Assembly (NCBI GenBank): GCA_903921785.1
Contig: CAIXRH010000328.1
Span: forward strand, 1-40,373
Reading direction: 5' to 3'
From: an uncultured Pseudomonadota bacterium
GTDB taxonomy: Bacteria > Myxococcota_A > UBA796 > SXON01
DNA: 40,373 nucleotides
Position numbers and translations under genes: made by a program. The notes under the pieces are model-generated. The model saw only the letters and a list, made by a program, of their open reading frames with translations, was not told where the DNA came from and searched no databases. The first letter of the stretch is position 1. Each line of letters begins with the position of its first letter. Shown here piece by piece: positions 17,455 to 27,360 of this stretch.

Positions 17455-20091
17455 ATGCTCCCCCTCCTCCTCGGCCTCGCGCTCGCCGCCCCCGACGACG
17501 CCCCGCCGGCGGCGCCTCCGGCCTCGCCCCCCGCTGACGCGCCCGCTGCGCCCGCTGCTCCCCCGGCCGCCGCGCCATCGACGGCGCCCGCGTCCGGCGA
17601 GCCGGCCACCCCCGCCGAACCTCCGGCCTCCAAGGCCCGCCTCCCCTCCCCGCTCTCGGTGCCCAACGCGCCGTACCCGGCCGAGGCGCTCGCCGCCGGA
17701 CAGGAAGCCGCGGTCCTCCTCGAGGTCACCGTGGCCGCCGATGGCACGGTGCCGCGGGTGGCGGTGCGGGAGTCCGCCGGGGCGGCGTTCGACGCAGGCG
17801 CGATGGCCGCCTTGCGCGCCGCCCGGTTCACGCCGCCGCTCGATGACGCCGGGGAGCCCGCGGCCGCCGTGATCCTCTACCGGTACCGGTTCACGCTCGC
17901 CACGGTCGCCACCGTATCGGCAGAAGGCACGGTGAAGCTGGCGGATGGAACGCCCGTGCCCGCCGTGGAGGTCCGCGCCCTGCGCGAGGGCGAGACCCGC
18001 TACGCCACGACCGACGACAACGGCGCCTTCCGCTTCGCCGACCTCGCCAGCGGCGAGTGGACCGTGGTGATGCAGTCCCTCTCCCTGGAGACGGCGACGG
18101 CCCCGTTCACCGTCACCGCCGGGCAGGTGGCCGTGGTGACCCTCGTCACCCGGATCCCCGAGCCCGACCCGGTGAAGGTGCGCGGCGCCACGATCCTGGT
18201 CGAGGCCGACGCGATCTCCACCGAGGTGTCCGAGCGGAAGCTCAGCGCCGCGGAGATCGCGTACCTCCCCGGCACCAACGGCGACGTGGTGAAGGTGGTG
18301 CAGAACCTCCCCGGCGTCTCCCGGCCGCCGCTCGGCACCGGCAACCTGATCATCCGCGGCACCTCTCCCGAAGACAGCGCCGCGTACCTCGACGGCAGCC
18401 GCATCCCGGTGGTCTTCCACTTCGGCGGCCTCACCACCGTGATCAACGGCAACCTCCTCGAAGAGGTGAGCTTCGTCCCCGGCAACGCCTCCGCCCGCTA
18501 CGGCCGCTTCCTCGGCGGCATGGTGGAGCTGCGCACCAAGCCCGACGCGCCCACCGGCCAGCACGGCCAGGCGCAGATCGACCTCTACCAGGCGACGCTC
18601 TTCGTCGAGAGCGCCATCGCGAAGGACGCCGGCGTGACCCTGTCGTTGCGCCGCTCCTACGCCGACGCCGTGCTGGTGCCGATCTTCAGCTCCATCCCCG
18701 GGGTGGACATCCAGGCGCCGCGGTACTTCGACATCCAGGCGCGCGCCCAGGCGAAGGTCGGCGCCACGAAGGTCGAGGGGCTCCTCACGCTGAGCGACGA
18801 CACGTTCGCGCTCGTCGGCGACAGCGAGGGCACCGAGGACGGGGCCGTGCAGATCGGCCTCTCCACCAACTTCTGGCGGGCACGCCTGAGCGGCCTCACG
18901 GAGCTCAACGACGGTTGGCACAACGAGCTCCGCCTCGGCACCGGCTACGACGCACAGGAATTCAAGTTCGACACCACCGGCACCGCCCGGGAGTCAAACA
19001 CGGCGTTCACTCTACGTGAAGAGCTGTCCCGGCCGGTGGAGAACGGGCGGATGGTGGGGTGGCGCTTCGGCATCGACGCCGAGGCCGGCCCGCAAGAGTT
19101 CCTCTACGACGTGAAGTCCTTCGGGGCCAAGGAAGCCGGCTCCGCGCTCCGCTTCGCCCCCGCCGCCTACGCCGAGGCGACCCTCCAGCTCGGCCCGGTC
19201 CGGGTGATCCCGGGGGTGCGCGCCGACGCGATGATCCTCGACAGCGACTACGCGAACGTCACGGTAGACCCGCGACTGAGCGGGCGCTGGGCCATCACCG
19301 AGACCACCGCGCTGCGCTTCGGCGTGGGCCGCTACAGCCAGTATCCGACGGTGCGGCAGCTCCTCCCCGACGGCGACGGCAACCCCGACCTCGGCCCCGC
19401 GTGGGCCCTCCAGTCAAGCCTCGGGGTGGACCAGGAGCTCTTCTCGATGCTCCACGTCGAAGCCACCGTCTTCTACAACCACCTCGACGATCTGGTCGTC
19501 GGCCGCGAAGACCGCATCAAGTTCTTCACGGGGCCGCCCAATTTCGGACCCAAGGACACCGACCCCTACGCCAACGACGGCACCGGGCGGGTGTGCGGCG
19601 GCGAGCTGCTCCTGCGCCTCGACGCGCCGAAGACCCTCGCGCTCTTGAGCCTCACGGTGTCGAATTCTGCGCGCGTCAAGCGCCCCGGCGACGCCGAGGT
19701 GCTGTTCGAATATGACCAGCCGGTCGTGCTCAACGTGCTCGGCAGCCGCGACCTCGGCAAGGGCTGGCGCGCCGGCGCGCGCGTCCGGTACGGCAGCGGC
19801 GACCCGTACACGCCGGTCACCAACCGCTTCTACGACATGAGCTCCCGCTCCTTCCTGCCGATCTACGACGAGAGCGCCAGCGACCGGCTCCCCGACTTCT
19901 TCTCCCTCGACGTCCGCATCGACAAACGCTGGACGGTGAAGTGGGGCGAGATCGCCGCCTACCTCGACGTGCAGAACGCCACCTACGCGCAGAACGTGGA
20001 GGTGATGCGGTGGAACTACGACTACACCGAGGCCGATCCGGTGACCGGCCTGCCGACGTTCCCCACGTTCGGCCTGGAGGCGAAGTGGTGA
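17455..20091 (+). CDS. TonB-dependent receptor with N-terminal TonB_C domain
   Basis: 878 residues. Signal peptide 1-11 (M-L-P-L-L-L-G-L-A-L-A), then an Ala/Pro-rich linker to about 60. Residues about 62-150 look like a TonB C-terminal domain (P-Y-P-A-E-A-L, E-V-T-V-A-A-D-G-T-V, F-D-A-G-A-M-A-A-L, A-A-R-F-T-P-P). Residues about 155-235 are a carboxypeptidase-regulatory-like Ig fold. The plug follows at about 250-365 (V-V-Q-N-L-P-G-V, L-I-I-R-G-T-S-P-E-D, G-G-M-V-E-L-R-T-K) and then a 22-strand-type barrel ending in a terminal Trp. It sits in the outer membrane. The substrate is unknown. The next gene overlaps its stop, so the lipoprotein is a likely partner. Confidence 0.9.
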   Translation: MLPLLLGLALAAPDDAPPAAPPASPPADAPAAPAAPPAAAPSTAPASGEPATPAEPPASKARLPSPLSVPNAPYPAEALAAGQEAAVLLEVTVAADGTVPRVAVRESAGAAFDAGAMAALRAARFTPPLDDAGEPAAAVILYRYRFTLATVATVSAEGTVKLADGTPVPAVEVRALREGETRYATTDDNGAFRFADLASGEWTVVMQSLSLETATAPFTVTAGQVAVVTLVTRIPEPDPVKVRGATILVEADAISTEVSERKLSAAEIAYLPGTNGDVVKVVQNLPGVSRPPLGTGNLIIRGTSPEDSAAYLDGSRIPVVFHFGGLTTVINGNLLEEVSFVPGNASARYGRFLGGMVELRTKPDAPTGQHGQAQIDLYQATLFVESAIAKDAGVTLSLRRSYADAVLVPIFSSIPGVDIQAPRYFDIQARAQAKVGATKVEGLLTLSDDTFALVGDSEGTEDGAVQIGLSTNFWRARLSGLTELNDGWHNELRLGTGYDAQEFKFDTTGTARESNTAFTLREELSRPVENGRMVGWRFGIDAEAGPQEFLYDVKSFGAKEAGSALRFAPAAYAEATLQLGPVRVIPGVRADAMILDSDYANVTVDPRLSGRWAITETTALRFGVGRYSQYPTVRQLLPDGDGNPDLGPAWALQSSLGVDQELFSMLHVEATVFYNHLDDLVVGREDRIKFFTGPPNFGPKDTDPYANDGTGRVCGGELLLRLDAPKTLALLSLTVSNSARVKRPGDAEVLFEYDQPVVLNVLGSRDLGKGWRAGARVRYGSGDPYTPVTNRFYDMSSRSFLPIYDESASDRLPDFFSLDVRIDKRWTVKWGEIAAYLDVQNATYAQNVEVMRWNYDYTEADPVTGLPTFPTFGLEAKW

Positions 20092-20897
20092 TGCTCCTTC
20101 CCCTGTTCTTCGCCTGCTCCGGCCCCAACGACGAGACCCTGGTCGACGAGCTCCGCGTGCTCTCGATGATCCCGGCCGCGCCGGAGATCGCCCCCCTGGA
20201 GACCACGGATGTCGACGTGCTGGTCGTCGACCCCGGCGCCGACGGCTACCGCGCCCTGGTGTGGTCCTGCACCCGCCTCGGCGACACCTGTCTCGAAGAC
20301 GACGAGGGCCGCACCGTCTCGGTCGTCGAGCCCGAAGCCGGCGCCACGGCGACGCATTTCCCGACCCCGGTCACCGCCTCGGCCGCCCTCGCCGCTGTCG
20401 CCAGCCCGGCGCCCGTCCCGTTCATCTCGGTGTGGGCGCTCGCCTGCGTGGACGGCGCATGCCCGCTCCTCGACCAGGTGGAAGCCGGGGAGTCCATCGA
20501 CCCCGCCGTCTGGTCCGACCCGACCGACTGGCTGGCCGACCTCCCCATCGAGGGCACCACGCTCGCGTTCACCACCCTGTCCGTCTCGACGAACCTCCCG
20601 GAGGATCGGCATCAGAACCCGATCCTCACCGTGGAGCCCAACGAGGAGTCGGTGGCGCCCGGCGAGACCAACCGGCTCATCGCCCAGCTCGCGGGCGAGA
20701 TCGGCGCCGAGGCGAAGGTGTGGGGCTATGCCGCCGACGGCGGCTTCGAGATGACCGACGACCGGCCGAACCTGAACCTCCGCGCGAAGCTCGACTGGGT
20801 GGCGCCCGCCGACGCCGGCGAGACCGACGTCTGGCTCATCGCGGAGGACGGCCTGGGCGGGGCGGCCTTGTGGGAAGGGAGCCTCACGGCCGAGTGA
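20091..20897 (+). CDS. Lipoprotein coupled to the TonB-dependent receptor
   Basis: 268 residues. The ATG at 20091 overlaps the receptor stop (TGATG); a GTG one codon upstream would give a GTGA overlap and the same protein. The signal is extremely short, M-L-L-P-L-F-F-A-C, with Cys9 as the acylation site, followed by S-G-P-N-D. The mature part is acidic and strand-rich, with two or three Ig-like repeats (E-P-N-E-E-S-V-A-P-G-E-T-N near the end) and two Cys pairs (about 60/68 and 123/128) that could form disulfides. No known family. By analogy with SusD-like or other TBDR companions it may be a substrate-capture lipoprotein, but this rests on position only. Confidence 0.75.
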   Translation: MLLPLFFACSGPNDETLVDELRVLSMIPAAPEIAPLETTDVDVLVVDPGADGYRALVWSCTRLGDTCLEDDEGRTVSVVEPEAGATATHFPTPVTASAALAAVASPAPVPFISVWALACVDGACPLLDQVEAGESIDPAVWSDPTDWLADLPIEGTTLAFTTLSVSTNLPEDRHQNPILTVEPNEESVAPGETNRLIAQLAGEIGAEAKVWGYAADGGFEMTDDRPNLNLRAKLDWVAPADAGETDVWLIAEDGLGGAALWEGSLTAE

Positions 20898-20903
20898 GCG
20901 GGG

Positions 20904-21227
20904 CTAGAAGAAGTCCCCGAGCGAGCACGAGTACACCTGGGCGCAGTCCTTCGGGTAGTCCTCGTAGAGCTCGCCGCAGGTGGCCGCCTGCACCTTCTCC
21001 AGGCAATCCCGGGCTTCGTCGTCGTCGAAGTCGCAGCCGGAGGGGACGTCGTCGAAGTTGTCGAGGACGTCGTCCACGCAGTCGTCCATCACCCCGTCCC
21101 ACTCGGCCTCGAAGTAGCCGCGGCTGCACTCGCGGGTGCGCTCGCAGGAGAGGGAGGCGTACTGATCGGGGAAGGTGTCCTCGTCGACGACGAGGAAACA
21201 ACCGACGAAGGCGAAGAGGGCGAACAT
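20904..21227 (-). CDS. Small Cys-rich acidic lipoprotein
   Basis: 107 residues, ATG at 21227 with a strong AAGGAG seven bases before it. The lipobox is F-V-G-C with Cys10; eight further Cys (28, 34, 50, 65, 75, 84, 95, 101) are spaced as four probable disulfides. The sequence is very acidic (long Asp/Glu runs). The repeated pattern of a C-x5-C pair, a Y-F-E-A-E-W motif and a final C-A-Q-V-Y-S-C resembles a lipoprotein type that I know from Myxococcota, of unknown function. It lies 22 bases after the stop of the metzincin gene on the same strand and may be the last gene of the redox lipoprotein operon. Confidence 0.78.
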   Translation of the reverse strand: MFALFAFVGCFLVVDEDTFPDQYASLSCERTRECSRGYFEAEWDGVMDDCVDDVLDNFDDVPSGCDFDDDEARDCLEKVQAATCGELYEDYPKDCAQVYSCSLGDFF

Positions 21228-21249
21228 GGCGGGGCTCCTTGGCCCGCGG

Positions 21250-21909
21250 CTAACCGGGCGAGGTGCCCGCCGGCACGCCCGTCGCGTCGGGACACGCCGC
21301 CCGCCGCAGCCGCGCCGCCATCGCCAGGCTCACCGGGTGGGGTTCGGCGTCCCGTCCGGGGTCCATCAGCGACCGCGCGTCGGTGGCGTGGCCTTCGCCG
21401 AGGAGGTGCGCGAGCTCGTGGCCGAGCACCTCGCCCGCGTCGGGGTGCCCGTGCAGCGTGCGCCGGGAGGCGAGGATCGTCGGGGGAAGCCCTGGGGGAA
21501 TCGGCAGGTCCGCCGCGAGCGGGGTGAGCGCCAGCGCCTGGAGCGTGCCCAGCGTCCGCGCAGCGACGGTGTCCGGCGCGGCGAGGTCGGGCACGAGCAC
21601 GAGCTGGAGCCCGACGCCGCCGAGCGGCAGGCGGTCGAGCCCGGCGCCGTCGAGCGGGTCGCCGTAGGCGCCGACGCCCACCTCCTGCGAAGGCTCCATG
21701 CGCAGCCCGATCGGCGCCGCCCAGGCCGCGAGCGCCGCGACCATCGCCGTGGCGTCGGCGGGGGCGAGCGTCGCGTCCACGAACGTGCGCACCGGGACGA
21801 CACAGGCGCCGGCCGCGGCGTGCCACGCGCCGAGCGGCACCACCGACGCCGGGGTGGGAGCCGGGGGCGCCGCCCCCCCGCAGCCGAAGAGCCCCGCGAA
21901 GAGGATCAC
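21250..21909 (-). CDS. Metzincin-type metalloprotease lipoprotein
   Basis: 219 residues. The GTG at 21909 overlaps the cytochrome stop by four bases (GTGA); a GTG one codon earlier (21912) is possible. The signal is minimal: M-I-L-F-A-G-L-F-G-C with Cys10 as the acylation site. The long metzincin zinc motif H164-E-L-A-H168-L-L-G-E-G-H174 is complete, with a Met182 shortly after (S-L-M-D-P) as the Met-turn. The short spacing between the third His and the Met is typical of small archaemetzincin-like or M10/M12-like bacterial proteins. It should be an active surface or periplasmic protease. Its target is unknown; coupling to the cytochrome gene suggests maturation or turnover of a partner. Confidence 0.82.
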   Translation of the reverse strand: MILFAGLFGCGGAAPPAPTPASVVPLGAWHAAAGACVVPVRTFVDATLAPADATAMVAALAAWAAPIGLRMEPSQEVGVGAYGDPLDGAGLDRLPLGGVGLQLVLVPDLAAPDTVAARTLGTLQALALTPLAADLPIPPGLPPTILASRRTLHGHPDAGEVLGHELAHLLGEGHATDARSLMDPGRDAEPHPVSLAMAARLRRAACPDATGVPAGTSPG

Positions 21910-23243
21910 CACGCCTCGACCGAGCCCTCCGCCCCCGCGAGCTCGTAGATCGGCAGGTCGGGGATGTGATCGTCCAGGCCCGCGGTGCGCAACAGATGCG
22001 GCGACGCCGGACGGAGGCGCAGCCGCACCGCCACGTCAATCGGCCCCGCCGCCGCCGCGCTCGTCGGCACGAAGTACGTGGATGCCCGCTGGTACCCCGG
22101 CGGGATCGCCGCGCTCCAGTGCTCCGTGGCCCGCCACGGGAAGAGCGTGGGCTCCCCGTCGGCGTCGATGAACCCGCTGCCGAACGTCACCAGGTCGGGG
22201 TCCCCGTAGGGGTCCGACACGGACCAGTAGCCGCGGAGATCCCCGTCGTCGCCGAGGGTGCCGCTCTCGTAGAGCACCGTGCCCTCGGCGTCCGTCACCA
22301 CGAGCTCGATCCACAGCTCCCGGATGAACGTGGAGCCCGTCGGGAGGTTGTGCCCGGCGATGAGGTTGGTCACGTCCACCGTCACCGGGAGCACGTCGCC
22401 GCGCGCCACGCCGTCCGGCAGGACGAGGTCGACCGCGGCGGCCTGGGCGAGGAGCGTGTCGATCCGCGCGGCGACGTCGGCGTCGCCGAAGGGGTTCTCG
22501 ATGCCGACGAAGCGGTGGTCGTGGACGGTGCGCTCCGGCCCGTCGGTCGCCGCCTTGCCCGTGGTCTCGGGCATGTGGCAGTCCTGGCACGTCTGCCCCT
22601 CCAGCGCCGCCGGCGACTCCTCCCACTCGTAGTACGGGCGTTCGAGGTCGAGCCCCGAGGGCTCGATGACGTCGTGGCAGGCGCCGCAGAAGCGCGCGCC
22701 CGAGAAGTCGTCCAACGGCGCGGACGCGTGGAAGCTGTTGCCGGTCGGGTCGGCGATCGGCCCGTGGTAGGGCGCGGCGGGGTCGAGCACGAGGCCGCTG
22801 TTGTAGTCGCGTTCGACCGAGGTCGTGGCGTGGCAGGCGAGGCAGGTGACCCCTTCGTCGACCACGGGGCTGAGCGCATCGAACGAGAAGCCCGGCGCGA
22901 TCTCCCCTCCCCGCACGCCGATCGCCGAGTGGCACTGGGTGCAGAAGCGGTCCTGCTTCCCCTCGAAGTCACCCTGGCGCACGCTGACCAGCACCTGGAA
23001 CAGCGGATCCACGATGGCGTAGGCGTGGTTGCTCGTCGACCACTGCGCCACCTGATCGGGGTGGCACTTCGCGCACTGGGCGGAGGTGGGGAAGTCGGAG
23101 GGATCGAGCGTCGGCGTCCCCGGCATGGACAGCGGATCGGTGAGCGAACCGTCGCCGGAGTCGGCGGTGTCGGCGGCGGTGTCGGGGCTCGTGGTGTCCG
23201 TGGCGCACGCGGCGAGCGCGAGGAGGAGGAGGGCGCGGCTCAT
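21906..23243 (-). CDS. Pentaheme cytochrome c lipoprotein
   Basis: 445 residues, ATG at 23243 overlapping the upstream stop by four bases (ATGA). Lipobox L-A-L-A-A-C13 followed by an Asp/Thr linker. Five CxxCH heme sites: C57-C60-H61, C101-C104-H105, C134-C137-H138, C186-C189-H190 and C219-C222-H223, all in the first half, as in cytochrome c554-type multiheme domains. Several extra His (for example near 73, 160, 172, 241-243) could be distal ligands. The second half (about 265-445) is a heme-free beta-sandwich beginning V-D-V-T-N-L-I-A-G-H-N-L-P-T-G. It should carry electrons at the membrane surface between the di-heme oxidoreductase partner and another donor or acceptor. Confidence 0.92.
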   Translation of the reverse strand: MSRALLLLALAACATDTTSPDTAADTADSGDGSLTDPLSMPGTPTLDPSDFPTSAQCAKCHPDQVAQWSTSNHAYAIVDPLFQVLVSVRQGDFEGKQDRFCTQCHSAIGVRGGEIAPGFSFDALSPVVDEGVTCLACHATTSVERDYNSGLVLDPAAPYHGPIADPTGNSFHASAPLDDFSGARFCGACHDVIEPSGLDLERPYYEWEESPAALEGQTCQDCHMPETTGKAATDGPERTVHDHRFVGIENPFGDADVAARIDTLLAQAAAVDLVLPDGVARGDVLPVTVDVTNLIAGHNLPTGSTFIRELWIELVVTDAEGTVLYESGTLGDDGDLRGYWSVSDPYGDPDLVTFGSGFIDADGEPTLFPWRATEHWSAAIPPGYQRASTYFVPTSAAAAGPIDVAVRLRLRPASPHLLRTAGLDDHIPDLPIYELAGAEGSVEAW

Positions 23244-25621
23244 CGGGACTCCACGAAGGCCAGGAGGTCCGCCTGCTCGGCGGGCGTGAGCAGGTCGTAC
23301 GCTTCGCGCGACGCCAGCCCTTCCCCGTCGTGCCGCTCGATGGCGTCCGCCACGGTCTCGGAGGCGCCGTCGTGGAAGTACGGCTTGGACTCCGCGATCC
23401 CCCAGAGCGGCGCGGTGCGGAACTCGCCCATCTCGGCGCTGCCGTCCTCGATGCCACGGCTCCCCGCCGGGAGGATGTCGTGGAGGAGGAAGTCGGAGTA
23501 CGCCGCGACGGCGCCCCGGTCGCCCTCCAGCACGGGCACGTGGCAGAGATCGCAGCCGACGGTGCTGAAGGTGACCTCGCCCCGCGCGACGGCGTCGGCG
23601 TCCGCCGGCGTGGGTCGGGGCGGCGGCCCGAGCTCGCTGAGGAAGGTCAGCAGCAGGTCGGCGTCGGCCTGGGAGAGCTCGGGGTCCGCGACGTCGTCGT
23701 TGTCGTAGATCCGCCCGAACGTGAGGCCGTCCTCGCGGGGGAGCGTCATCCCCAGCTCGGTCGCCACGGCGTCGCGGACGAACTCCGCGAGGGTGGGGAC
23801 CTGCGCTTTCCAGCCGAAGCGGCCGAGGCGGCCGCCGTCGACGCGGCTGACGCGGCCGGAGATCCCGTCCGGCGTGCGGGTGTCGTCCGGGTCCGCCAGC
23901 GCCTCGATCACGGCGTCGGGGATCGCGTCCACGAGGCCGAGGCCGAACAGCGCCGGGGTGTTGCGCGGCTCGTAGACGTTCACCTGGGCCTGGGCCTCGA
24001 TGCCCGTGCCGAGGAGCGCGGTCTCCCGGTGGAGCACGGTGCCGATGGTCGGGACGATGAAGCTACCGTCCGCGTCCACGATGCCGTGGCGCATCACCGC
24101 GAGGTCGCGGGGGCCGGAGCCGCCGATGACCGGGTCGAAGTGGCAGGCACGGCAGGAGTCGCCGTTGAAGCGGGGGTTGCCCACGCCGTCGTCCACGCCG
24201 AAGTCGTGGTCGAAGCGCTCGCGCCCGGCAACGTAGGCGTCCAGGTCGGCGCCGGAGAGCTCCGTCGCCGGGCCGCCGAACTCGCCGGCGGCGGGGACGG
24301 GGGCCGCGGGGGGCAGGAGCCCCGTCGTGGCCTGGTCGGCGCCGCCGAGGGAGAGGAGGAACGCCACGACCTCGGCTTGTGCGGCGGCGTCGAGGGCGGC
24401 GTAGCGGTCCCGGGATTCCTGGCCTTCGCCCCCGTGGAGGCGGATCGCGTCGTCGAGCGACTGGGCGCGCCCGTCGTGGAGGTACGGGCCCTCGGCCGCG
24501 ACACCCCAGAGCGGCTGGGTGCGGAACTCGCGCGCGGTGGCGAAGCCCTGGACGATGCCGTCCGCGAGGTCGTCGCCCATGTCGTGGAGCAGGAGATCGC
24601 TGTAGATCGGCACCGGACCGCGCGGGCCCTGGAGGCGGGGCGCGTGGCAGGCGGCGCAGCCGAGCTCGTCGAAGTGGGCCTGCCCCGCCAGGGCGTCCCC
24701 CGTGGGGGTCTCGATCGGCGGAGCGCCGAGGAGCATCGCGAAGCTCACGAGATCGAAGAGGTCGTCGCTGCTGAGCTCAGGGTCGGGGATGGCGTCGGTG
24801 TCGGTGAGCGGGCCGTCCGGCGCCGCCGCCTGGGCGTAGGCGGAGAGGCCATGGAACGGGTCGCTCGCGCCGCCGGTCGGGCCGGAGGGGCCGAGGAGCC
24901 GGTCGAGCAGGCCGACGCTGCCGGTGCTCGAGTCCACCGGGAGGCGGGCGCGCTGCTCGTCTGAGAGCGGGTTGCTGGTGATGCCGACGTGGTTGTTGAG
25001 CGGCCCGCGGATGAACGCCTCGATGGAGACGGTCTGCGCCTTCATGCCGAACTTCCCCACGTAGCCCCGGTCGTAGTTGGGGCGGCCGGAGATGCCGTCG
25101 CCGTCGGCGTCGTCGGGATCAGCGCGGCGGAGGATCTCCTCATCGTCGATCTCCGCGATGAGCCCCATGCCGAAGAACGGGATGGGATTGCGCTGGGCGA
25201 AGACGTTGTCGCTGTCGGGCACCGCAGGACGCGCGTCGTACGCGGCTCCCGCGTAGTTGATGCGCACGACCCCCGAGGCGTTCCCTGCGGAGGAGCCGAA
25301 GAAGAAGCTGCCATCCTCCAGGACGCGCCCGGCGATGAAGAAGTTGCGGTACATGCCCGCGGAGCCGCCGAAGACCGGCTTCTCGTGGCAGGCCGCGCAG
25401 AAGCTCACGTTGAAGCCCGGCCCGAGCCCGGTGGAGCTGTCGAAGCGCCGCTTGGCGACCTCCTTGCCGCGCTTGAACGTGGCCAATTGTTCCGCCGTGG
25501 CGGAAGGCATCGGCTCCCCGAGCGGCGCGAGGATTCCCTCGGCGATGGGGCCGTGGCCCTCGCCCCCGGTGTCGGTGTCCGTGGAACAGGCCGCGAGGAG
25601 CAGGAGGAAGATCGGGCGCAT
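23240..25621 (-). CDS. Tandem fusion of two di-heme oxidoreductase (DUF1111/DHOR) modules, lipoprotein
   Basis: 793 residues from the ATG at 25621, which overlaps the propeller stop by one base. Lipobox L-L-L-A-A-C12. Two full DHOR modules lie in series. Module 1 (about 35-430) has hemes at C75-C78-H79 and C322-C325-H326; module 2 (about 455-793) at C490-C493-H494 and C690-C693-H694. Both keep the signature block R-T-x-P-L-W-G-V/I-A followed by Y-L/F-H-D-G and a H-G/D-G-E-G loop. DHORs are MauG/peroxidase-like proteins often found with imelysins or copper/iron systems and annotated as thiol oxidoreductases. A tetraheme fusion could pass electrons along its length. Usual members are about 450-500 residues, so this is a doubled form. 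Confidence 0.93.
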   Translation of the reverse strand: MRPIFLLLLAACSTDTDTGGEGHGPIAEGILAPLGEPMPSATAEQLATFKRGKEVAKRRFDSSTGLGPGFNVSFCAACHEKPVFGGSAGMYRNFFIAGRVLEDGSFFFGSSAGNASGVVRINYAGAAYDARPAVPDSDNVFAQRNPIPFFGMGLIAEIDDEEILRRADPDDADGDGISGRPNYDRGYVGKFGMKAQTVSIEAFIRGPLNNHVGITSNPLSDEQRARLPVDSSTGSVGLLDRLLGPSGPTGGASDPFHGLSAYAQAAAPDGPLTDTDAIPDPELSSDDLFDLVSFAMLLGAPPIETPTGDALAGQAHFDELGCAACHAPRLQGPRGPVPIYSDLLLHDMGDDLADGIVQGFATAREFRTQPLWGVAAEGPYLHDGRAQSLDDAIRLHGGEGQESRDRYAALDAAAQAEVVAFLLSLGGADQATTGLLPPAAPVPAAGEFGGPATELSGADLDAYVAGRERFDHDFGVDDGVGNPRFNGDSCRACHFDPVIGGSGPRDLAVMRHGIVDADGSFIVPTIGTVLHRETALLGTGIEAQAQVNVYEPRNTPALFGLGLVDAIPDAVIEALADPDDTRTPDGISGRVSRVDGGRLGRFGWKAQVPTLAEFVRDAVATELGMTLPREDGLTFGRIYDNDDVADPELSQADADLLLTFLSELGPPPRPTPADADAVARGEVTFSTVGCDLCHVPVLEGDRGAVAAYSDFLLHDILPAGSRGIEDGSAEMGEFRTAPLWGIAESKPYFHDGASETVADAIERHDGEGLASREAYDLLTPAEQADLLAFVESR

Positions 25622-26601
25622 CAGGGCACCTCGCGGCGGATCAGGAAGCCTCGGTAGGGTTCGGCGAAGACGCCGCCGACGCCGTAGGCGTGGCCCGCGC
25701 CGTCGCTCCAGATCGCGTGGACGTCGTCCGTCGTGACGAGCGGGTCCTTCACCACGTCGCCGCTCGCGAGGTCGTAGGTGCCGGTGAAGCCGTAGATCCC
25801 CCCGATCCAGGCGTCGTCCCCGCTGACGTACACCGCGTTGAGCCCGGTCATCGCGTCGGGCATCTCGGTGGTCCAGGTCGTACCGTCGTACCGGGCGATG
25901 CGGCCGTTGCCCCGCCCGCCGACGGCGACGACGTCCGTGGCCGAATTCCCCCACAACGACACGAAGTCGTCGTTCGCGAACGGCCCGCCGAACTCCTCCA
26001 CCCAGCGGGTGCCGTCCCACTCCACGATGAGCCCCAGGTCGCCCACCGCCCAGACCTTCCCGTCGATGCCCCAGACCTTGAACAGCGCGACGCCGCCGTG
26101 CTGGTTCTGGTCGGTCTCCACCGGCACTTCGGTGAACGACGTGCCGTCGTAGTGGAGGATGAGCGGCCAGGTGCCTGTGACTTCTCCCCCAACGATCCAC
26201 AGGTCCGTGGGCGAAGTCCCCCACACGCCCCAGAGGTCGCGAGTGGTGCCGGAGTCGAGGGTGCTCCACGCGCTGCCGCCCCAGTGCAGCACGCTGCCGC
26301 CACGCCCGACCGCGAACACGTCGTCCGAGGCGAAGCCGTAGGCCCAGACCAGGAGGTGGGTGCCGTCCGGGACGGCGCTCTCGGACCAGGTGCTCCCGTC
26401 GAAGTGGCGGACGTCCGCGACGTCCTGGTTGCCGCCGACGGCCCAGATGTCGTCGGGTCCCGCGCCCCAGACACCGCTCATGGCCGTGGTGTCTGAGGTG
26501 TAGACCTCGGTCCACTCCGCGCCGACGGGGCCGGCGGTATCCCCCGTGTCTTGGGAGTCGCAGGCGGAGAGGAGGGCGAGGGCGACGACGGAGCAGCGCA
26601 T
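25621..26601 (-). CDS. Beta-propeller lipoprotein with WG repeats
   Basis: 326 residues, ATG at 26601. Lipobox A-L-L-S-A-C14 followed by D-S-Q-D-T-G-D-T. At least six blades carry the pattern S/A-V/L-W-G-x-x-x-x-D-x-W-x-V-G-G (for example G-V-W-G-A-G-P-D-D-I-W-A-V-G-G and S-L-W-G-N-S-A-T-D-V-V-A-V-G-G), a form abundant in myxobacterial lipoproteins. It should be a protein or ligand binding platform outside the cell. It is the first gene of the all-lipoprotein run; a hairpin with the ribosome-binding site in its loop lies directly before the start, so expression of the whole run may be controlled there. Confidence 0.88.
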   Translation of the reverse strand: MRCSVVALALLSACDSQDTGDTAGPVGAEWTEVYTSDTTAMSGVWGAGPDDIWAVGGNQDVADVRHFDGSTWSESAVPDGTHLLVWAYGFASDDVFAVGRGGSVLHWGGSAWSTLDSGTTRDLWGVWGTSPTDLWIVGGEVTGTWPLILHYDGTSFTEVPVETDQNQHGGVALFKVWGIDGKVWAVGDLGLIVEWDGTRWVEEFGGPFANDDFVSLWGNSATDVVAVGGRGNGRIARYDGTTWTTEMPDAMTGLNAVYVSGDDAWIGGIYGFTGTYDLASGDVVKDPLVTTDDVHAIWSDGAGHAYGVGGVFAEPYRGFLIRREVP

Positions 26602-26624
26602 GGCGGGATCTCTCCTATCCCGCC
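26602..26624 (-). promoter_or_regulatory. Leader hairpin with the Shine-Dalgarno sequence in its loop
   Basis: Read on the minus strand, GGCGGGAT-AGGAGAG-ATCCCGCC has a perfect 8-bp stem and a 7-base loop, and is followed immediately by the ATG at 26601. The loop holds AGGAG, ten bases from the ATG. The fold would not bury the ribosome-binding site itself but would place a GC-rich stem against the start codon, a plausible translation switch. It could instead be a DNA operator. Confidence 0.5.
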
Positions 26625-26649
26625 AAGCAATTTCAGTGCCGCCGGGCGA

Positions 26650-27360
26650 TCACTCCGCCTGGACGCGGATGTCTCCCGATCCGGTGCTGAGGTCGAGGAC
26701 GTTCGGGGACGACGCGTCGATCACGATCCCGTCGTCCACGTGCACCTCGCCGGAGCCGACGTCGGTGCTCAGGGCGTAGCTGCCGGCGGGGACGCTGAGC
26801 TCCACGTCGCCCGAGCCGGTGCCGATCTTGACCTTGGTCGGCGCCACCGTGAAGCCGACGGTGATCTCGCCCGAGCCGGTGGACGCCTCCAGCGTCGCGG
26901 CGGTGGCGCGCTTGACGGTGATGTTGCCCGAGCCGGTGGCGAGGAGGGTGTCGCCCAACGGGGTGTCGAGGTCCACGTCGCCAGAGCCCGTCTCGAGGTC
27001 GAGCGCGCCGGTCATCGCGCGTACGTCCAGGTCGCCGGAGTCGACGAGCACCTTCAGCGAGATCGCCTCGGGGAGGGTCACGTCGGCGGTGATCTCGCAG
27101 ATCGCCAGCTCGGGCTGGCAGATCGACTCGACCGAGAACACCCCGTCGGCATCGACGTCGTGGGAGAGGCTCGGTTCGCTGCCCGAGAAGCGGGCGCTCA
27201 TCTCGGCGATCGCGCCGGTGGCTTCGGCGTCCCCGTCGACGGTGACCGTGCCAGAGCTGACATGCAGATCGGCGCCGGTCAGCGGGCCGTCGGCCTCGAT
27301 GGTCTTGTCGACGGTGTCGACGGTGAGGACGCACGCGGTGAGGGCGAGGAGGAACGTCAA
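26650..27360 (-). CDS. DUF4097-type beta-repeat lipoprotein
   Basis: About 236 residues. I choose the TTG at 27360, with GGAG five bases upstream, giving M-T-F-L-L-A-L-T-A-C as a minimal lipoprotein signal like its neighbours; a GTG at 27390 would add ten basic residues. The mature protein is a stack of short strands with recurrent S/T-G-S-G-D/E-I/V turns (for example L-E-T-G-S-G-D-V-D-L, A-T-G-S-G-N-I-T-V, S-T-G-S-G-E-I-T-V, G-T-G-S-G-D-V-E-L), the DUF4097 right-handed parallel beta-helix. Usually surface-attached, of unknown role. It begins 48 bases after the SGNH gene stop, probably on the same transcript. Confidence 0.82.
   Translation of the reverse strand: MTFLLALTACVLTVDTVDKTIEADGPLTGADLHVSSGTVTVDGDAEATGAIAEMSARFSGSEPSLSHDVDADGVFSVESICQPELAICEITADVTLPEAISLKVLVDSGDLDVRAMTGALDLETGSGDVDLDTPLGDTLLATGSGNITVKRATAATLEASTGSGEITVGFTVAPTKVKIGTGSGDVELSVPAGSYALSTDVGSGEVHVDDGIVIDASSPNVLDLSTGSGDIRVQAE

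What the first reader, a model, noticed from the sequence alone, without database searches (positions are those of the whole stretch)
20904..26601. Five consecutive genes, every product a lipoprotein, form a redox and protease module
Propeller, tetraheme DHOR fusion, pentaheme cytochrome, metzincin and Cys-rich protein lie in one direction. The first three junctions overlap by 1, 4 and 4 bases and the last gap is 22 bases. Each has a lipobox Cys (residues 14, 12, 13, 10 and 10). Together they carry nine CxxCH sites and one H-E-x-x-H-x5-H protease. Seen: coupling, lipoboxes, heme motifs. Known: DHOR proteins are MauG/peroxidase-like. Inferred: an assembled outer-face complex that oxidises a protein or metal substrate. 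I know of no described system with this gene set.
Basis: partly seen in the sequence, partly recalled or inferred. Interest (0 to 1): 0.78.

Follow-up and report, generated by a model that had tools for sequence, protein, structure and literature searches.

The report
Conserved propeller–double-MauG redox operon
Four neighbouring genes for lipid-anchored proteins (a seven-bladed propeller, an enzyme made of two fused MauG/peroxidase-like haem units, a five-haem cytochrome and a zinc protease) form a real operon that recurs in many Myxococcota, and its two-gene core also occurs in Planctomycetota, which points to an undescribed cell-envelope redox complex whose substrate is unknown.

Summary
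In detail: five minus-strand genes with the stated overlaps, lipobox cysteines, nine CxxCH motifs and one HExxHxxGxxH motif. Four of the five belong together; the fifth does not.

Core: a seven-bladed propeller (no Pfam family) beside a tandem DHOR, two MauG/cytochrome-c-peroxidase-fold units in one chain. In 80 named loci (Myxococcota, Phycisphaerae and a few others) the propeller family is present in 63, directly upstream in 52. In the window-type branch a pentahaem cytochrome follows (22 loci), then a metzincin (13). Elsewhere a DUF192 lipoprotein takes third place (21 loci). In 71 genomes of the class, pentahaem and metzincin occur only in genomes with the tandem DHOR (Fisher p 4e-8 and 3e-7). 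The Cys-rich fifth protein is in all ten other genomes of the genus searched, nine of which lack the tandem DHOR.

Best reading: a lipoprotein redox complex with the propeller docked on the double enzyme, as HZS-beta with HZS-gamma in hydrazine synthase, and the pentahaem exchanging electrons. Rival: the enzyme oxidises the propeller itself (MopE/CorA style). Complex formation and substrate are inferred. No description of this gene set was found in the open-access papers searched. New variant of a known kind.

The parts
25621..26601 (-). PROP: seven-bladed beta-propeller lipoprotein (326 aa), first gene, core partner of the tandem DHOR
   Evidence: AlphaFold2 pLDDT 94.6, pTM 0.89; top PDB match Ycf48; propeller family present in 63 of 80 tandem-DHOR loci
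23240..25621 (-). DHOR2: tandem di-haem oxidoreductase lipoprotein (793 aa, 4 CxxCH), two MauG/BCCP-fold units
   Evidence: PF06537 195 bits; AlphaFold2 pLDDT 91.7; fold matches Z about 16-17 to HZS-gamma, BCCP, MauG, MbnH
24302..25534 (-). DHOR unit 1 (residues about 30-440; haems at CxxCH 75-79 and 322-326)
   Evidence: HHalign unit 1 against unit 2, E 3.6e-89, 39% identity over 343 columns
23243..24295 (-). DHOR unit 2 (residues about 443-793; haems at CxxCH 490-494 and 690-694)
   Evidence: HHalign unit 1 against unit 2; MauG row covering 458-793, Z 15.9
21906..23243 (-). PENTA: pentahaem c-type cytochrome lipoprotein (445 aa, 5 CxxCH), c554-like haem part plus C-terminal GHNLPTG domain
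   Evidence: nearest solved structure 5ze8, T. tepidum pentahaem c552, E 4e-19; immediately downstream of DHOR2 in 22 of 22 loci that have it
21250..21909 (-). METZ: small metzincin-type zinc protease lipoprotein (HELAHLLGEGH...SLM)
   Evidence: weak M10 match, 16.3 bits, below cut-off; second gene after DHOR2 in 13 of 14 loci; confined to DHOR2-bearing genomes in the class
20904..21227 (-). Cys-rich small lipoprotein; adjacent but NOT part of the conserved module
   Evidence: orthologs in all 10 other genomes of the genus searched, 9 of which lack DHOR2; in a different gene context in the six of those nine read

Best explanation
The four genes 26601-21250 encode an envelope-anchored redox complex. 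Shown: (a) the genes are a conserved, tightly packed unit with a two-gene core (propeller + tandem DHOR) and lineage-specific additions (pentahaem + metzincin here, a DUF192 lipoprotein elsewhere); (b) each half of the DHOR has the MauG / bacterial cytochrome c peroxidase fold in a confident model. Inferred: the cofactor-less seven-bladed propeller docks on the double MauG-like enzyme as a scaffold or gate, as HZS-beta does with HZS-gamma in hydrazine synthase. In each unit the second haem is bis-His and passes electrons to or from the first, reactive haem, where a small oxidant (peroxide, or an N-oxide) or another substrate is converted. The lipid-anchored pentahaem, whose five CxxCH haems are matched by exactly five other invariant histidines, is the electron relay. 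The metzincin trims a component or a partner during assembly. The actual substrate is not known; a multi-electron reduction at the DHOR haems is my leading guess.
For: Conserved order and packing. Phyletic link: in 71 class genomes, pentahaem orthologs in 10 and strong metzincin matches in 9, all among the 17 with DHOR2, none of 54 without. The propellers that score 353-393 bits are exactly 12 that lie next to DHOR2; four more (221-246 bits), not in the training set, lie next to divergent DHOR2s. Co-divergence PROP-DHOR2 r 0.57 (n 56), PENTA-DHOR2 r 0.79 (n 20). Fold. Bis-His second haem: the BCCP axial Met aligns with His396, and His346/His714 lie in the motif that aligns with HZS-gamma; all are invariant in 67 sequences. 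Pentahaem: His73, 172, 243, 298 and 375 invariant in 24 of 24 beside the five CxxCH. Precedent: HZS is a seven-bladed propeller plus MauG-like di-haem subunit with a bis-His haem, and some fused beta-gamma relatives carry c554 domains (PMC12758564, PMC12607021). The window's own genome encodes propeller/di-haem fusion proteins.
Against: No physical interaction was tested. The propeller family also has members not next to any DHOR, and several of its invariant residues persist in an unpaired paralog, so they are not specific to DHOR binding. DHOR2 is not measurably closer to HZS-gamma than to BCCP, MauG or MbnH (tied Z). Most core loci lack the pentahaem, so it cannot be the only electron partner. 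Phycisphaerae copies lack pentahaem and metzincin almost throughout. Distal-pocket residues could not be mapped onto BCCP/MauG. The mirror-tree correlations also reflect shared species history.
Confidence: 0.45

Rival explanations
1. The propeller is the substrate: the MauG-like tandem enzyme oxidises tryptophans (or another side chain) of the propeller, making a metal site or cofactor, as proposed for SACCP/CorB acting on MopE/CorA.
For: One dedicated partner protein per di-haem enzyme, gene pairs conserved across phyla; propellers are Trp-rich (mean 4.7%) with Trp86 and Trp124 invariant in 58 of 58, and Trp124 is replaced by Tyr in the unpaired paralog L064; MauG and MbnH are among the nearest folds; precedent in PMC3912023.
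Against: Trp is a common structural residue of this propeller type; Trp86 and other invariant residues also occur in an unpaired paralog; the second haem is predicted bis-His, not His/Tyr as in MauG (own knowledge of MauG); the pentahaem is not explained.
Confidence: 0.25
2. An iron (or other metal) oxidation or uptake module, like the imelysin-DUF1111 (DHOR) operons.
For: DHOR is the DUF1111 family, which accompanies imelysins in Fur-regulated iron-uptake operons (PMC3143127); all parts are lipoproteins.
Against: No imelysin, permease or TonB-dependent receptor family recurs at a fixed place next to the pair in 80 loci; this genome has no DHOR other than the tandem one.
Confidence: 0.12
3. 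A surface peroxidase or electron outlet: the pentahaem feeds electrons to DHOR2, which simply removes peroxide.
For: Each DHOR2 unit has the BCCP fold; the nearest solved relative of the pentahaem is T. tepidum c552.
Against: Does not explain why the propeller is the constant partner and the pentahaem the variable one, nor the tandem architecture.
Confidence: 0.13
4. A chance neighbourhood of unrelated lipoprotein genes.
For: Lipoprotein genes are common here (23% background by a permissive pattern), and the fifth gene really is a chance neighbour.
Against: Recurrence of the four-gene order in divergent genomes, with 47-65% identity of the pentahaem and 55-72% of the DHOR; phyletic exclusivity.
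Confidence: 0.02

Closest known systems
Hydrazine synthase HZS-beta/HZS-gamma and the fused beta-gamma homologs of non-anammox bacteria (PMC12758564; PDB 5C2V)
   Same: Seven-bladed propeller without cofactor together with a MauG-like di-haem protein whose second haem is bis-His; some homologs carry c554-type multihaem domains; found in Planctomycetota and others
   Different: Here the enzyme is a tandem of two di-haem units of the DHOR family, far below the HZS-gamma cut-off; no third haem-bound Cys; no alpha subunit next to it; separate lipoproteins; a metzincin is added
MopE/SACCP and CorA/CorB of methanotrophs (PMC3912023)
   Same: Surface or secreted protein encoded with a di-haem BCCP/MauG-type enzyme; a proposed protein-oxidising pair
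   Different: MopE/CorA are copper proteins with another fold; single-unit enzyme; no pentahaem or metzincin
MbnH/MbnP (TIGR04039; PDB 6E1C)
   Same: MauG-like di-haem enzyme with a dedicated partner; close fold match (Z 16)
   Different: P0002 scores 34.6 bits against a cut-off of 362.85; the propeller has no mature cysteine beyond the lipobox, so it is not the four-Cys partner
Imelysin-DUF1111 iron-uptake operons (PMC3143127)
   Same: Contain a DHOR (DUF1111) di-haem protein in an envelope operon
   Different: No imelysin or other iron-uptake gene recurs here; tandem rather than single DHOR; propeller as the constant partner
Thermochromatium tepidum pentahaem cytochrome c552 (PDB 5ZE8)
   Same: c554-like first part and a C-terminal HxxPTGxxxR-type domain align with P0003 (E 4e-19)
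   Different: P0003 is a lipoprotein linked to DHOR2; function of neither shown here

Membership tests
DHOR / DUF1111 (PF06537) | Pfam score above the curated cut-off (22 bits) | tested here: met
   195.2 bits, two stretches, each covering profile positions about 208-499 only
Bacterial cytochrome c peroxidase / MauG superfamily | Di-haem BCCP/MauG fold | tested here: met
   Predicted model pLDDT 91.7; VIA Z about 16-17 over 222-261 residues to HZS-gamma, BCCP, MauG, BthA; HHalign to 27 BCCPs of related genomes, probability 99%
Bacterial cytochrome c peroxidase / MauG superfamily | Distal catalytic Glu and inter-haem Trp | tested here: inconclusive
   Unit 2 has invariant Trp604 and Glu622, unit 1 invariant His211, but the profile alignment does not resolve this region
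MauG (TIGR03791) | NCBIfam equivalog cut-off 443.85 bits | tested here: not met
   24.7 bits
MbnH (TIGR04039) | NCBIfam cut-off 362.85 bits | tested here: not met
   34.6 bits
MbnH/MbnP pair | Four-Cys MbnP partner next to the enzyme | tested here: not met
   The propeller has only Cys3 and lipobox Cys14
Hydrazine synthase gamma | NCBIfam cut-off 625 bits | tested here: not met
   27.8 bits
Hydrazine synthase gamma | Third haem-bound cysteine (gamma-Cys165, PMC12758564) | tested here: not met
   P0002 has only the eight haem cysteines and the lipobox Cys; no other conserved Cys column
Hydrazine synthase complex | Alpha subunit encoded with beta and gamma | tested here: not met
   No such recurrent neighbour in 80 loci; the genome's only HZS_alpha match is on another contig
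Imelysin-DUF1111 operon | Imelysin gene next to the DHOR | tested here: not met
   No recurrent neighbour family at a fixed position beyond PROP, PENTA, METZ and DUF192
MopE/CorA with SACCP/CorB | Kynurenine in the partner protein | not testable with these tools
   Needs protein chemistry
Metzincin zinc proteases | HExxHxxGxxH zinc motif and Met-turn | tested here: met
   P0004 HELAHLLGEGH...SLM; motif in 12 of 14 locus METZ proteins and Met-turn in 11 of those 12
Peptidase M10 (PF00413) | Pfam cut-off 24 bits | tested here: not met
   16.3 bits
Pentahaem c552 / c554-type cytochromes | Sequence relation and five CxxCH | tested here: met
   5ze8 E 4.1e-19 with three aligned stretches; PF13435 above cut-off
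Ycf48-like propeller | Sequence family membership | tested here: inconclusive
   Fold resembles Ycf48 (E 2.5e-10, TM 0.67) but no Pfam match above cut-off

The most novel reading that the evidence does not exclude
The propeller + tandem-DHOR pair is a widespread, undescribed class of envelope redox enzyme related in architecture to hydrazine synthase beta-gamma, with two coupled MauG-type active sites in one chain and its own multi-electron chemistry (for example on an N-oxide), found in Myxococcota and Planctomycetota.
Probability: 0.2. Interest if true: 0.85.

Novelty: new variant of a known kind. Interest (0 to 1): 0.56.

Why it matters
It gives a clear, testable unit out of a group of bacteria whose envelope redox biology is little known. 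The constant pairing of a propeller with a double MauG-like enzyme, across at least two phyla, gives a simple model for asking how MauG-type haem enzymes recruit partners and how hydrazine-synthase-like assemblies could have arisen from existing envelope cytochromes.

Tried and rejected
Cys-rich fifth protein as a module component: rejected. Direct membership in MauG, MbnH or HZS: rejected on curated cut-offs and missing features. Mapping distal catalytic residues (Trp604, Glu622, His211) onto BCCP/MauG: profile alignment with 27 BCCPs did not resolve the region, so the idea that unit 2 is the catalytic half and unit 1 the modified half is left as a lead only. Claim that the propeller's invariant residues (Trp86, Lys175, His295) are specific to DHOR pairing: weakened because an unpaired paralog keeps them. 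Pfam and NCBIfam for the propeller: no family above cut-off. Recurrent transporter or regulator next to the core: none found. An empty-site comparison for the module failed, because P0005 in sister genomes lies in another context. Literature searches for DHOR/DUF1111 with a propeller returned no description of this gene set (open-access library only).
Full report
OBSERVATION. Two flanking genes also look like lipoproteins: 26650-27360 on the same strand 48 bases upstream (DUF4097) and the convergent 20085-20897, so the limits of the block needed an outside test.

WHAT BELONGS TOGETHER. A search of 94 related genomes with the pentahaem protein found orthologs with 47-65% identity; those with enough DNA on that side have the tandem DHOR directly upstream. 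Longer stretches of these loci show propeller, tandem DHOR, pentahaem and metzincin in the same order in L031, L032, L035 and L037, a propeller moved to the far side of the set in two loci of another family (L038, L039), and no metzincin in L034 and L036. A scan of 84,980 species genomes with the tandem-DHOR alignment gave 80 named loci, mostly Myxococcota and Phycisphaerae, plus single MAGs labelled Binatia and Bdellovibrionales, and Myxococcus vastator. With my own gene caller and profiles, the propeller family is present in 63 of the 80 loci and directly upstream in 52; the pentahaem is immediately downstream in all 22 loci that have it; the metzincin is the second gene downstream in 13 of 14; a DUF192 lipoprotein follows in another set of loci (21 in all). 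Spacing is tight or overlapping in most. On the DHOR2 tree the pentahaem loci, together with the Phycisphaerae, fall on one well-supported side (SH-aLRT 100), and the DUF192 loci outside it. In the 71 genomes of the class, pentahaem orthologs (10 genomes) and strong metzincin matches (9) occur only among the 17 with DHOR2 (Fisher p 4e-8 and 3e-7). A caution: the profiles were built from cassette members, so thresholds favour them. Four propellers next to divergent DHOR2s that were not in the profile score 221-246 bits, above nearly all propellers that are not next to a DHOR2 (two of those reach 253).

WHAT DOES NOT BELONG. Orthologs of the Cys-rich protein (43-71% identity) are in all ten other genomes of the genus that were searched, and nine of those ten have no tandem DHOR at the threshold used. 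In the six of those nine whose loci were read (G001, G003, G004, G005, G006, G009) the gene sits in a shared, different context. In G002, the one genus member besides the window's own that has the module, the ortholog lies on another contig. It is a neighbour, not a part.

ANATOMY. The propeller model is confident (pLDDT 94.6, pTM 0.89), seven-bladed, closest to Ycf48 among solved structures, with no Pfam or NCBIfam family above cut-off. The tandem DHOR model is confident (pLDDT 91.7); its two units align to each other over 343 columns (39% identity), and the BCCP/MauG fold is matched at Z about 16-17 to hydrazine synthase gamma, BCCP, MauG, BthA and MbnH, which are tied. Most rows of that comparison cover unit 1; one MauG row (Z 15.9) covers unit 2. 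The axial Met of BCCP aligns with His396, and His346/His714 lie in the stretch aligned with HZS-gamma; with His764 all are invariant in 67 sequences, so the second haem of each unit is probably bis-His. The reactive-haem pockets could not be mapped by sequence. The pentahaem protein has five CxxCH and exactly five other histidines invariant in 24 sequences, consistent with bis-His haems and an electron-transfer role; its nearest solved relative is the T. tepidum pentahaem c552. The metzincin motif and Met-turn are mostly conserved, the rest of the protein varies.

MECHANISM. The constant pair is propeller + double MauG-like enzyme; the pentahaem and metzincin are additions. The closest worked-out precedent for a cofactor-free seven-bladed propeller bound to a MauG-like di-haem protein is hydrazine synthase beta-gamma, whose distant fused homologs are common in environmental bacteria and sometimes carry c554 domains (PMC12758564; PMC12607021). 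The window's own genome encodes a propeller/di-haem fusion (L184 6889-8820) and a second cluster that resembles the published HZS-homolog clusters (L260). I therefore favour a docked complex with electron exchange through the pentahaem. The main rival is that the propeller is the enzyme's own protein substrate, as proposed for MopE/SACCP and CorA/CorB (PMC3912023). Iron handling by analogy to imelysin-DUF1111 operons (PMC3143127) and plain peroxide removal are less likely. Shown: gene conservation, fold, haem-site counts. Inferred: complex formation, bis-His ligation, direction of electron flow, protease role, membrane face.

CELL LOCATION. Lipobox motifs are common in all four families. In E. 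coli Asp at +2 keeps lipoproteins in the inner membrane, and sorting signals differ among bacteria, M. xanthus included (PMC3222651). The window's propeller has Asp at +2, but only 5 of 50 propellers and 8 of 70 DHOR2s with a lipobox do. The membrane face cannot be decided from sequence.

NOVELTY. The parts belong to known superfamilies; the propeller subfamily, the tandem DHOR and their pairing were not found described in the papers searched (open-access library only). New variant of a known kind.

Noticed in passing
L260 (G000:C25:69000-85000), minus strand: A second redox cluster in the same genome: FG-GAP/ASPIC protein, propeller-thioredoxin fusion lipoprotein, ApbE, HZS_alpha-like 931 aa protein, and an 805 aa propeller + di-haem protein; resembles the HZS-homolog clusters of PMC12758564.
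   Followed up: partly
L184 6889-8820 (G000:C53): A 643 aa lipoprotein that fuses a YVTN-type propeller to a MauG-like di-haem domain.
   Followed up: partly
window 17455-20091, plus strand: One protein with a TonB C-terminal domain near its N-terminus, a carboxypeptidase-regulatory-like domain, and a TonB-dependent receptor plug and barrel: transducer and receptor in one chain.
   Followed up: no
window 20904-27360: Very short predicted lipoprotein signal peptides (Cys at residues 10-14), some without a positive charge; the METZ family median in relatives is also 10, while the other three families have 16-20.
   Followed up: no
L107, L111, L114 (Phycisphaerae): The propeller sits with a divergently transcribed two-haem DHOR next to the tandem DHOR.
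   Followed up: no
L123, L131, L137, L139, L148, L159, L160 and others: A DUF192 lipoprotein takes the third position of the operon where the pentahaem is absent.
   Followed up: partly
L176-L181: The Cys-rich P0005 family is conserved across the genus in a different gene context, opposite in strand to its flanking genes.
   Followed up: partly
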